Source: Planctomycetota bacterium (GTDB lineage: Bacteria; Planctomycetota; Planctomycetia; Gemmatales; Gemmataceae). From it: a stretch of DNA of 64,000 nt. Under the pieces are notes generated by a model that ran no database searches, was not told where the DNA came from, and worked only from the letters and a program-made list of their open reading frames with translations. The position numbers were made by a program, and so were the translations under genes. This document shows, piece by piece, positions 33,977 to 56,984 of the stretch; positions within the stretch are counted from its first letter, which is position 1, and each line of letters opens with the position of its first letter. Location of the stretch: contig JACPPF010000023.1 of assembly GCA_016191165.1 (NCBI GenBank), positions 1 through 64,000 of the forward strand, written 5' to 3'.

Positions 33977-34279
33977 ATGAACGGGCGCGTGTTTCTCGAT
34001 GTCGATCCGCGAACACCGCGCGTCCCAGGCTTACGTAGATCGGGGGCGGATCCGTGGAAGTTGCACCGTCAGATCGCGAAGCATGGCAGTTCGACGCAGG
34101 GTATGCCGCCGTTAGAAGTGAGCCGGGGGACCGATGGAGAGTTGGTGATCAACAACGCCGTTACGCGGGCGACGCGGATCGCCAAGCTGTCTCCAGGAAC
34201 CACGGTGCGTGTTGAAGGGATTGACGATCTGCCGATACCCGTTGGATCGTTCCCGTCGATTGGAGATTTGATTCCATGA
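33977..34279 (+). CDS. Small conserved protein, first gene of an ATGA-coupled pair
   Basis: A 100-residue protein starting MNGRVFLDVDPRTPRVPGLR, with middle ADPWKLHRQIAKHGSSTQG and end VEGIDDLPIPVGSFPSIGDL. The sequence VINNAVTRATRIAKL recalls the Sulfiredoxin/ParB-like nuclease fold, in which a GVTRA-type turn binds nucleotide. I have a memory of similar cyanobacterial and planctomycete pairs but no known function. Its TGA overlaps the ATG of the next gene, so the two are translationally coupled. A toxin-antitoxin or defence role is possible but unproven. Confidence 0.65.
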   Translation: MNGRVFLDVDPRTPRVPGLRRSGADPWKLHRQIAKHGSSTQGMPPLEVSRGTDGELVINNAVTRATRIAKLSPGTTVRVEGIDDLPIPVGSFPSIGDLIP

Positions 34280-34515
34280 TTGCATCGCATGCCGATGAAT
34301 TGGTGGACGCACTGTCCGAGCTACGCATTCTGTTTCCCGATTGGCGTATGGGCCAACTCATTGCAAACCTGGTGACGGCCGCAGGCGGAATGGATGCCAA
34401 TGCAATATGGGACATGCAGGACGAAAAACTCCTTGCCGCTGCTCGCCGGCTCATTGAGCGGAATCAAGGTCGTGCCGGGGTTCTCGTCAAACAATCAGGG
34501 CGAACCACCGGATGA
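34276..34515 (+). CDS. Small conserved protein, second gene of the ATGA-coupled pair
   Basis: A 79-residue mostly helical protein (ELVDALSELRILFPDWRMGQ, AIWDMQDEKLLAAARRLIER). It overlaps the preceding gene by four bases (ATGA), the classic arrangement for subunits made in a fixed ratio. The FPDWRMGQLIANL sequence is distinctive and appears conserved in relatives as I recall. No enzyme motif is seen, so it may be the binding partner or regulator of the first protein. Confidence 0.65.
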   Translation: MIASHADELVDALSELRILFPDWRMGQLIANLVTAAGGMDANAIWDMQDEKLLAAARRLIERNQGRAGVLVKQSGRTTG

Positions 34516-34575: not shown

Positions 34576-34809
34576 ATGTCCCGCCATCCGAACAAGCACA
34601 TTCAAGCGGCTGTGAAGTACGCGCAGAGCCTCGGCTGGCCGCTGACTCTGTCTCGCGGGCAGGCTTGGGAAATTCTCCGTTGACCTTTCGGACACCAGCA
34701 ATGTCAAATTTCAGTATGGTCCACCCCGCAGATCCCTGAAAACCACGCCAAGGATATTCGACGCCGCGTCGAGCATTGTCCGAGAGGACAAAGTTGTGGC
34801 GAAGTTTAG
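34576..34809 (+). pseudogene. Small HicA-like/'VWSTP' family gene interrupted by an in-frame TGA at a conserved Cys
   Basis: One frame runs from ATG 34576 to TAG 34807-34809 with a single TGA at codon 36 (34681-34683). Before it: MSRHPNKHIQAAVKYAQSLG, then GQAWEILR. After it: PFGHQQCQISVWSTPQIPEN, then RRRVEHCPRGQSC. In the family as I remember it the junction reads L-R-C-P, so TGA replaces a Cys codon by one base change. The 3' end overlaps the next gene by 14 bases, the normal layout for this pair. It is probably a nonsense mutation; a selenocysteine codon cannot be excluded, though no clear SECIS hairpin is seen. Confidence 0.65.
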
Positions 34810-35110
34810 CAGAAAAGGGATGGACGAGTACCAATTCACGCTAATTCTAACCGGGATCAAGGATTTGACGCCCGACGTCACCGATGCTCTTTACGAGGCC
34901 GGTTTCGATGACGCTCTGGTCGGAATGTCGGCGGGGGTTCCCTATATCGATGTGAACCACCGTCAAGCAGAATCTCTGGAAAAGGCCGTTCGTGAATCTA
35001 TTCGTGATGTTGCAAAAGCGGGCTTTCATGTAATACGGGTCGAATCCGAAACCGCCAATGCGATCACCCGAATCAATGCGGAGTTACTGACGCTAACACC
35101 GCATTCGTAG
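34796..35110 (+). CDS. Small conserved protein, partner of the VWSTP-family gene (antitoxin-like)
   Basis: A 104-residue protein from a GTG start with GAGGA eight bases upstream. The core YQFTLILTGIKDLTPDVTDA, LYEAGFDDALVGMSAGVPYI and ESLEKAVRESIRDVAKAGFH matches the partner protein that usually follows the VWSTP gene in many bacteria, often annotated as hypothetical or HTH antitoxin-like. Those relatives often have a C-terminal helix-turn-helix; here the end (ITRINAELLTLTPHS) is short, so that region may be lost. Its start overlaps the preceding gene. Confidence 0.65.
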   Translation: MAKFSRKGMDEYQFTLILTGIKDLTPDVTDALYEAGFDDALVGMSAGVPYIDVNHRQAESLEKAVRESIRDVAKAGFHVIRVESETANAITRINAELLTLTPHS

Positions 35111-35403: not shown

Positions 35404-35438
35404 AAAAAAAACTCACGCGCGATGCGTGAGCTTTTTTT
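35404..35438. terminator. Bidirectional terminator after csrA
   Basis: A stem CTCACGC/GCGTGAG (35412-35430) is flanked by eight A on the left and seven T on the right, so it can terminate on both strands. It lies 33 bases past the csrA stop. Confidence 0.85.
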
Positions 35439-35471
35439 GCGATCGATCAGCGCGAATACGGTTCGCGGGAA

Positions 35472-35675
35472 TCAAACCTTGGCTGCCAGAACGGGTTTGT
35501 CGGCGGGAAGTTTGGGCACTTTGGATTCGTCCAAAAGCTCCTGCCGGAAGATTGGCACGTCGCGCGGGGCTTCGATCCCCAGGCGAATTTTGCCGCGATC
35601 AATATCGACAACGGTGATGCAAATGTTGTCGTTGATGTAGATCTTCTCGCCCAACTTTCGACTTAGTACCAACAT
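35472..35675 (-). CDS. csrA: Carbon storage regulator CsrA
   Basis: A 67-residue RNA-binding translational regulator. The N-terminus MLVLSRKLGEKIYINDNICI is canonical, followed by the conserved core VVDIDRGKIRLGIEAPRDVP with the RNA-contact Arg. Such dimers bind GGA motifs in leader mRNAs; in many bacteria they control motility, storage and secretion. AAGGAGG precedes the start at 35675 at ideal spacing. A TACAAT lies upstream on the minus strand (35717-35722) as a possible -10 box with no good -35. A bidirectional terminator follows. The gene is monocistronic. Confidence 0.95.
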   Translation of the reverse strand: MLVLSRKLGEKIYINDNICITVVDIDRGKIRLGIEAPRDVPIFRQELLDESKVPKLPADKPVLAAKV

Positions 35676-36172
35676 TTCGCTGCCCTCCTTCGAGCGATGC
35701 TGACTGGGTCCGGTGTATTGTAGCCCATGTTTGGCCACGCGTGGGACGCTGGGGAGAATCTTTTCTCCCCGTTGTTTTTGATGACGCGAGCAAGTTCGAT
35801 ACCAACTGCATGACTGTTTCGACTGGGCGCGTAGGCGCTTGCCTCAAGTCGTTCCAAAACATAACGTTCCGAACTTGAGAAAAAATCTGGATTTCCGTGA
35901 AAAGCGGGTGAAGTGTTTCGTGGAGTGGTCGAAAAAGGTTGAAATCGGCGCATTTTTTTTCAAGTTTTGGACACCTGGACACTTTTCGTTGCCGAATGTG
36001 GTACAACGAGGCTGCGTTTTGGTGGCGCCCGGGGGCTTTCCCAGCTTCCTGGGCTTGCGCCGTCTTCGCTCGTTTTGCCGCTGGCAACCGAGCGTTAGTT
36101 TGCGGCCATGTGAATGCCACGCCGCGAGGGGCAAGGTAATTGGGGAAGTCGTCATCTGACTGAAATATTGCC
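35676..36172. other. Intergenic region between csrA and the UvrC-like gene
   Basis: About 500 bases with no gene that can be supported. The middle has an A/T-richer stretch (T-run at 35951-35960 and GTTTTGGACACCTGGACAC) where divergent promoters might lie, but no confident hexamer pair was identified. Confidence 0.4.
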
Positions 36173-56583: not shown

Positions 56584-56790
56584 TCAAACCTCCACATATT
56601 CGCATTCGGTGGCGGGTTCCGGAATGGGCAAGCCGTCTTCGCGCAAACCCTCCAGGTGAAACGGGACCGCCTCCGCGATCAATTTCTTGACCTCGGCCGC
56701 CGTTTTTCCAACGGCGACGCAGCCTGGTAAATCGGGGACGTAGGCGCCGTAGCTCGTGGGGCCTTTTTCGATCACAATCGCGTAACGCAT
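56584..56790 (-). CDS. hicB: HicB antitoxin
   Basis: A 68-residue HicB with the partially degraded RNase H-like fold: MRYAIVIEKGPTSYGAYVPD then LPGCVAVGKTAAEVKKLIAE. It lacks a C-terminal DNA-binding domain, as short HicB proteins do. GGAGGAAG lies six bases before the start at 56790, which overlaps the hicA stop by one base. It should neutralise HicA. The family resembles UPF0150/DUF1902-like HicB. Confidence 0.9.
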   Translation of the reverse strand: MRYAIVIEKGPTSYGAYVPDLPGCVAVGKTAAEVKKLIAEAVPFHLEGLREDGLPIPEPATECEYVEV

Positions 56791-56984
56791 CAATCTTCCT
56801 CCGGTAATTGGGCCTGTTTCCAGATGCTTTTTAGCGTCTTGATCGGCACGTCCACATTCAATTGGCCCGCCACTGTAACGCGCCCTTTCTTTACGGTGTG
56901 CTTGAATTGGCGATGACCGCCCTTCGACCGAATACGATACCACCCGTCAGCCTCCAAGCGTTTGATTACATCGCGCGCCTTCAT
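56790..56984 (-). CDS. hicA: HicA mRNA interferase toxin
   Basis: A 64-residue HicA with the dsRBD-like fold: MKARDVIKRLEADGWYRIRS, KGGHRQFKH with the catalytic His, and GRVTVAGQLNVDVPIKTLKS, then IWKQAQL. Such proteins cleave mRNA independently of ribosomes. It precedes hicB and overlaps it by one base (TGATG), the usual hicAB order. The ribosome site is not obvious. Confidence 0.92.
   Translation of the reverse strand: MKARDVIKRLEADGWYRIRSKGGHRQFKHTVKKGRVTVAGQLNVDVPIKTLKSIWKQAQLPEED

What the first reader, a model, noticed from the sequence alone, without database searches (positions are those of the whole stretch)
34576..34809. In-frame UGA at a conserved Cys in a small coupled gene
A 77-codon frame is intact except for TGA at codon 36, where I remember the family (VWSTP/HicA-like) having Cys in an L-R-C-P motif. 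Both sides of the stop match the family, and the 3' end overlaps the next gene in the usual way. This is either a fresh nonsense mutation or, less likely, a selenocysteine or readthrough site. Either way the operon's second gene is intact.
Basis: partly seen in the sequence, partly recalled or inferred. Interest (0 to 1): 0.65.

Follow-up and report, generated by a model that had tools for sequence, protein, structure and literature searches.

The report
Broken toxin-like gene beside intact partner
A small bacterial gene that looks like the toxin half of a two-gene toxin-antitoxin pair has been cut short by a stop codon while its partner gene stays whole; the stop is almost certainly an ordinary inactivating mutation and not a hidden selenocysteine, and the same one-sided breakage recurs across many related bacteria.

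Summary
34576-34809 (+) is a 77-codon frame of a small protein family with TGA at codon 36 (34681-34683). That position is Cys in 132 of 135 homologous sequences (TGC 69, TGT 63); only this copy has TGA. The pair is PADLOC's unpublished phage-defence candidate PDC-M06 (gene 1 = M06A; gene 2, 34796-35110 = M06B). But FwdB and SelD in this genus carry strong hairpins after their UGA (-16 to -22 kcal/mol); the window site does not (-5.4, z +0.8). No homologue has TGA there, and this copy also lost near-invariant His29. Best reading: a nonsense-inactivated gene. Structural alignment of a homologue's model puts HicA toxins at the top of a weak hit list. In 111 planctomycete loci, gene 1 is broken with gene 2 intact in 24; a recognisable gene 2 is never broken beside an intact gene 1, and 39 of 145 gene-2 copies lack gene 1. 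That is what a toxin-antitoxin pair losing its toxin would show. The stop is ordinary; the one-sided decay of an uncharacterised HicA-like pair is of moderate interest.

The parts
34576..34680 (+). gene 1 (PDC-M06A homologue), codons 1-35, still open: predicted helix 1, strand 1 and strand 2 of the HicA-like fold
   Evidence: Translation; homologue alignment; structure of an intact homologue
34660..34662 (+). codon 29, Gln in place of the near-invariant His (127 of 132 homologous sequences His, none Gln)
   Evidence: Column counts
34669..34671 (+). codon 32, Glu where homologues have Gly/Cys/Ala (no Glu in 132)
   Evidence: Column counts
34681..34683 (+). in-frame TGA at codon 36, position of the conserved Cys
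34684..34809 (+). 3' remnant of gene 1, codons 37-77 and TAG; keeps WSTP and PENHAKDIRR motifs (strand 3 and helix 2)
34783..34788 (+). AGAGGA, Shine-Dalgarno-like, 7 nt before GTG 34796, inside the gene 1 frame
   Evidence: Read directly from the sequence; inference
34796..35110 (+). gene 2 (PDC-M06B homologue), intact, 104 aa from GTG 34796 or 96 aa from ATG 34820; short form without the C-terminal helix-turn-helix
   Evidence: ORF, PADLOC PDC-M06B 5e-9, phrog_2620 5e-12, profile hit 107.9 bits
35412..35430 (+). terminator-like hairpin with T tail downstream of gene 2 (8 pairs)
   Evidence: Pattern scan; 2 found against 1.5 expected, so only suggestive

Best explanation
Gene 1 is a nonsense-inactivated copy of the first gene of a two-gene PDC-M06 module. 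Ribosomes stop after 35 residues, before the last strand and helix of a small alpha-beta-beta-beta-alpha, HicA-like protein, so no functional product is expected. Inferred working of the intact module: gene 1 is a HicA-like toxin (probably an RNA-acting protein using the conserved His) and gene 2 is its antitoxin and, in the long form with a helix-turn-helix, its repressor. Loss of the toxin is tolerated or favoured, loss of the antitoxin beside a live toxin is not; hence recurrent breakage of gene 1 with gene 2 kept. Shown: the stop, the homology, the lack of a SECIS-like hairpin, the one-sided decay. Inferred: toxicity, RNase activity, neutralisation.
For: Frame and homology on both sides of the stop. 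TGA unique to this copy among 135 homologous sequences. His29 also lost. No SECIS-like hairpin, unlike FwdB and SelD of the same genus. Other copies carry stops at scattered sites, TAG as well as TGA, at Trp, Arg and Cys positions, some in single-contig genomes, e.g. TGA at the second conserved Cys in L137 against a Cys codon in 95.9% identical L131. Of 111 planctomycete loci, gene 1 broken and gene 2 intact in 24; gene 2 damaged beside intact gene 1 in none, not detected in 3; 3 of 25 Enterobacterales loci also have only gene 1 broken. Gene-2 search: 39 of 145 copies have no gene 1, 3 of those keep a 5' stub; gene 1 without a detected gene 2 in 4 of 110. The genome's other copy (C163) has a frameshifted gene 1 and intact gene 2. 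Predicted fold (pLDDT 86) aligns best to HicA toxins: 5yrz Z 5.3, 6g26 5.0, 4p78 4.9, 6hpb 4.7.
Against: The 3' remnant is well preserved (52 bits) and the full read scores 110.6 bits, so decay is slight; that fits a young stop but also a site that is still translated. Structural Z scores about 5 are weak and unrelated folds reach 4.7. Toxicity of the family has not been shown by anyone as far as found. The first survey was anchored on gene 1 and favours loci where gene 1 is recognisable. The genome is a draft, so a base error at 34681-34683 cannot be excluded.
Confidence: 0.75

Rival explanations
1. Selenocysteine: UGA at codon 36 is decoded by SelB and tRNA-Sec in place of the conserved Cys.
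For: Sec machinery (selA, selB, tRNA-Sec) is in this genome and FwdB uses Sec; Cys at that position in homologues is the classic sign of a Sec/Cys pair.
Against: No stable hairpin after the UGA: -5.4 kcal/mol over 50 nt, z +0.84, best SECIS-like hairpin -3.8, worse than the shuffle mean; FwdB and SelD controls give -16 to -22 and hairpins of -13 to -17. None of 135 homologous sequences has TGA there, including those of the same Sec-decoding genus. His29 is lost. No full-length SelD was found in this assembly. Stops at other positions in other copies need no Sec to explain them.
Confidence: 0.02
2. Leaky or regulated readthrough of UGA (tRNA-Trp or other near-cognate) that makes a little full-length gene 1 protein, for example to keep a toxin at low dose.
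For: UGA followed by C is, from general knowledge, among the leakier stop contexts; the 3' half is well preserved.
Against: No homologue keeps a stop at this position; His29 lost; breaks elsewhere are frameshifts, truncations and TAG as well, which readthrough cannot rescue alike.
Confidence: 0.05
3. Assembly or sequencing error: the true base gives Cys and gene 1 is intact.
For: The genome is a draft in 183 contigs; reads are not available.
Against: Neighbouring His29Gln and Gly32Glu are separately unusual; the same kind of break occurs in single-contig genomes.
Confidence: 0.07
4. Gene 1 is dispensable for another reason (not a toxin); gene 2 is an independent regulator and gene 1 an accessory that is often lost.
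For: Gene 2 occurs alone in 39 of 145 copies with no shared alternative partner upstream; phrog_2620 annotates it as excisionase/regulator.
Against: Gene 1 is almost never found without gene 2 (4 of 110), and its predicted fold ranks HicA toxins first.
Confidence: 0.2

Closest known systems
PADLOC phage-defence candidate PDC-M06 (M06A + M06B)
   Same: An intact homologue of gene 1 matches six M06A models (best 3e-24) and gene 2 matches M06B (5e-9); same order, adjacent, same strand
   Different: In the window M06A is interrupted and M06B is the short form (104 aa against a 174-position model)
HicAB type II toxin-antitoxin systems
   Same: Small first gene with predicted alpha-beta-beta-beta-alpha fold; HicA structures head the structural list; a conserved His before strand 2 falls opposite HicA's His in the profile alignment
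   Different: No Pfam HicA match; profile comparison not significant; gene 2 shows no similarity to HicB
Bacterial selenoproteins with in-frame UGA (FwdB/FmdB, SelD)
   Same: In-frame UGA at a position that is Cys in homologues; organism decodes Sec
   Different: Window site has no SECIS-like hairpin and no Sec homologue

Membership tests
PDC-M06 module | First gene matches M06A profiles | tested here: met
   Intact homologue 3e-24; window copy aligned to the family at 110.6 bits
PDC-M06 module | Second gene adjacent and matching M06B | tested here: met
   5e-9; 19 of 19 family members match M06B
PDC-M06 module | Both genes intact (working module) | tested here: not met
   TGA at codon 36 of gene 1
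PDC-M06 module | Anti-phage activity | not testable with these tools
   No paper on PDC-M06 found; PDC systems are described as unpublished candidates (PMC11811056)
HicA toxin (PF07927) | Sequence match to the HicA profile | tested here: not met
   No HicA hit for any of 27 members up to E 1; hhalign probability 1.4%
HicA toxin (PF07927) | dsRBD-like alpha-beta-beta-beta-alpha fold | tested here: inconclusive
   Predicted order of elements fits and HicA chains lead the list, but Z is only 4.4-5.3 and Foldseek E-values are not significant
HicA toxin (PF07927) | Catalytic His (e.g. His28 of YpHicA3, PMC11594946) | tested here: inconclusive
   Family has His in 127 of 132, opposite HicA's His in a non-significant alignment; window copy has Gln
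HicB antitoxin | Sequence match of gene 2 | tested here: not met
   hhalign probability 0.1%; no Pfam HicB match
Selenoprotein | Sec machinery in the genome | tested here: met
   selA, selB, tRNA-Sec found, SelD not found in this assembly
Selenoprotein | SECIS hairpin immediately after the UGA | tested here: not met
   z +0.84, against strong hairpins in FwdB and SelD
Selenoprotein | UGA conserved in at least one homologue | tested here: not met
   0 of 135
Toxin-antitoxin system | Gene 1 inhibits growth, gene 2 neutralises it | not testable with these tools
   Bench test needed

The most novel reading that the evidence does not exclude
PDC-M06 is an unrecognised toxin-antitoxin system with a HicA-like toxin outside the Pfam HicA family and a non-HicB antitoxin, in which the toxin is repeatedly knocked out and the antitoxin kept on its own, perhaps as protection against invading copies of the module.
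Probability: 0.4. Interest if true: 0.5.

Novelty: new member of a known kind. Interest (0 to 1): 0.33.

Why it matters
The stop codon itself is ordinary. What it points to is an abundant two-gene candidate defence module without a published mechanism, whose first gene is broken more than five times as often as its second and whose predicted fold is HicA-like. That gives a direct, testable hypothesis (toxin and antitoxin) for PDC-M06. It is also a caution: an in-frame UGA at a conserved Cys in a Sec-decoding genome is not enough to call a selenoprotein; comparison with real Sec sites of the same genus decided it here.

Tried and rejected
Selenocysteine (hairpin test with same-genus positive controls, homologue codons). 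'No sel genes' as an exclusion: false for this genome. Alternative genetic code: TAG stops occur as well as TGA in this family and stops fall at Trp, Arg and Cys positions, so no single reassignment explains them. Pfam, NCBIfam and PDB sequence searches gave no family. A first structure prediction from a single sequence was poor (pLDDT 71) and its structural matches were uninformative. Foldseek on the good model had no significant match. Upstream partners of lone gene-2 copies: no shared family. No literature on PDC-M06.

Full report
What is there. The frame 34576-34809 (+) reads 35 residues, TGA at codon 36, 41 further residues and TAG. Both halves separately match a profile made without it (42 and 52 bits), so the read-through homology is far beyond chance. 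No Pfam or NCBIfam family matches convincingly. PADLOC identifies the pair: an intact relative of gene 1 matches the PDC-M06A models and gene 2 matches PDC-M06B, an unpublished phage-defence candidate (PDC systems in general: PMC11811056). The family occurs in Planctomycetes and Enterobacterales.

The conserved Cys. In an alignment of all copies collected, the column of codon 36 is Cys in 132 of 135 (TGC 69, TGT 63), with one Ser, one Gly, one Ala; the window alone has TGA. The window copy has a second lesion: the near-invariant His (127 of 132; 101 of 103 intact copies) is Gln, and the Gly/Cys/Ala position three residues on is Glu, which no other copy has. Of 103 intact copies only 3 deviate at two of the fourteen most conserved columns; the window deviates at two, one of them the stop itself.

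Selenocysteine. They are present: selB on C139, selA on C39, tRNA-Sec on C125, though no full-length SelD was found in this 95% complete assembly. FwdB (formylmethanofuran dehydrogenase subunit B; name from the motif and from general knowledge) carries an in-frame UGA in the motif DSHTSL-U-HGP in all seven genomes of the genus, including this one, in line with the published planctomycete fmdB selenoprotein (PMC4807772). Bacterial SECIS elements lie immediately after the UGA (PMC1794560). I therefore compared the site with FwdB and SelD of the genus: those fold at -16 to -22 kcal/mol over 50 nt with strong apical hairpins; the window folds at -5.4 (z +0.84), and its best SECIS-like hairpin (-3.8) is worse than the mean of shuffles. 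My hairpin criteria are a simplified version, from memory, of the published ones; against shuffles the controls' hairpins are not themselves unusual in this G+C-rich DNA, so the contrast rests on absolute stability and stem length. With no Sec homologue and the lost His, I put selenocysteine at about 2%.

Recurrent inactivation. Stops in other copies are at scattered positions, TGA and TAG, mostly at Trp codons. Close pairs show it is recent in places: L131 and L137, from single-contig genomes, are 95.9% identical across the locus and differ by a Cys codon against TGA at the second conserved Cys. Counting 111 planctomycete loci ('broken' means in-frame stop, frameshift or truncation within the contig): gene 1 broken with gene 2 intact 24, both damaged 5, gene 2 damaged with gene 1 intact 0, gene 2 not detected beside intact gene 1 3. 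A sign test of 24 against 3 gives p = 5e-5, though loci are related and not independent. In Enterobacterales 3 of 25 have gene 1 only broken. Because loci were found by gene 1, I searched again with gene 2: 145 places, 39 without gene 1, against 4 of 110 gene 1 places without gene 2; three lone gene 2 copies keep a 5' stub of gene 1, and lone copies share no other upstream partner. The second copy in this same genome has a frameshifted gene 1 and intact gene 2, so no intact gene 1 was found in this genome.

Mechanism. A model of an intact homologue (20-sequence alignment, pLDDT 86) has the order helix, three strands, helix. Re-alignment of Foldseek's candidates ranks HicA toxins of four species first (Z 5.3, 5.0, 4.9, 4.7), with 4c26, also HicA, at 4.4; unrelated aminotransferases reach 4.7, so this alone is weak. 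Profile alignment with HicA runs almost the whole length and puts the family's His opposite HicA's His but is not significant. HicA is a small dsRBD-fold RNase with an essential His (PMC11594946). Gene 2 is not HicB-like by sequence; it has a short and a long form, the long one with what looks like a helix-turn-helix C-terminus (inference from sequence). The best account is a toxin-antitoxin-like pair whose toxin gene has been inactivated here; the stop removes strand 3 and helix 2. Toxicity and neutralisation are inferred.

Verdict. Observation confirmed; nonsense inactivation supported; selenocysteine and programmed readthrough unlikely; sequencing error not excludable without reads. The stop is ordinary, the one-sided decay of an uncharacterised module is the part worth following.

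Noticed in passing
window 56590-56978 (-): A true HicAB pair lies in the same window: HicA (PF07927, 65.4 bits) at 56805-56978 and HicB (PF15919, 43.8 bits) at 56590-56784.
   Followed up: partly
L185 about 1425 (G000:C145), and L186-L191: FwdB/FmdB with in-frame TGA (DSHTSL-U-HGP) in all seven genomes of the genus, a selenoprotein with a strong hairpin after the UGA.
   Followed up: yes
G000 whole genome: selA, selB and tRNA-Sec are present but no full-length SelD was found, while all six genus relatives have it; three of those SelD carry an in-frame TGA. Possibly a gap in the assembly.
   Followed up: partly
L137 and L131: TGA at the second conserved Cys of gene 1 in one of two 95.9% identical loci from single-contig genomes.
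   Followed up: yes
L204, L217, L221: Lone gene 2 copies with a short 5' stub of gene 1 just upstream.
   Followed up: partly
window 33977-34515 (+): Two small overlapping ORFs (100 and 79 aa) upstream without any convincing Pfam, NCBIfam, PADLOC or PHROG match.
   Followed up: no
window 35412-35738: Hairpin with T tail (CTCACGC..GCGTGAG) between gene 2 and a CsrA-like gene on the - strand (35472-35738), terminator-like and possibly two-way.
   Followed up: no
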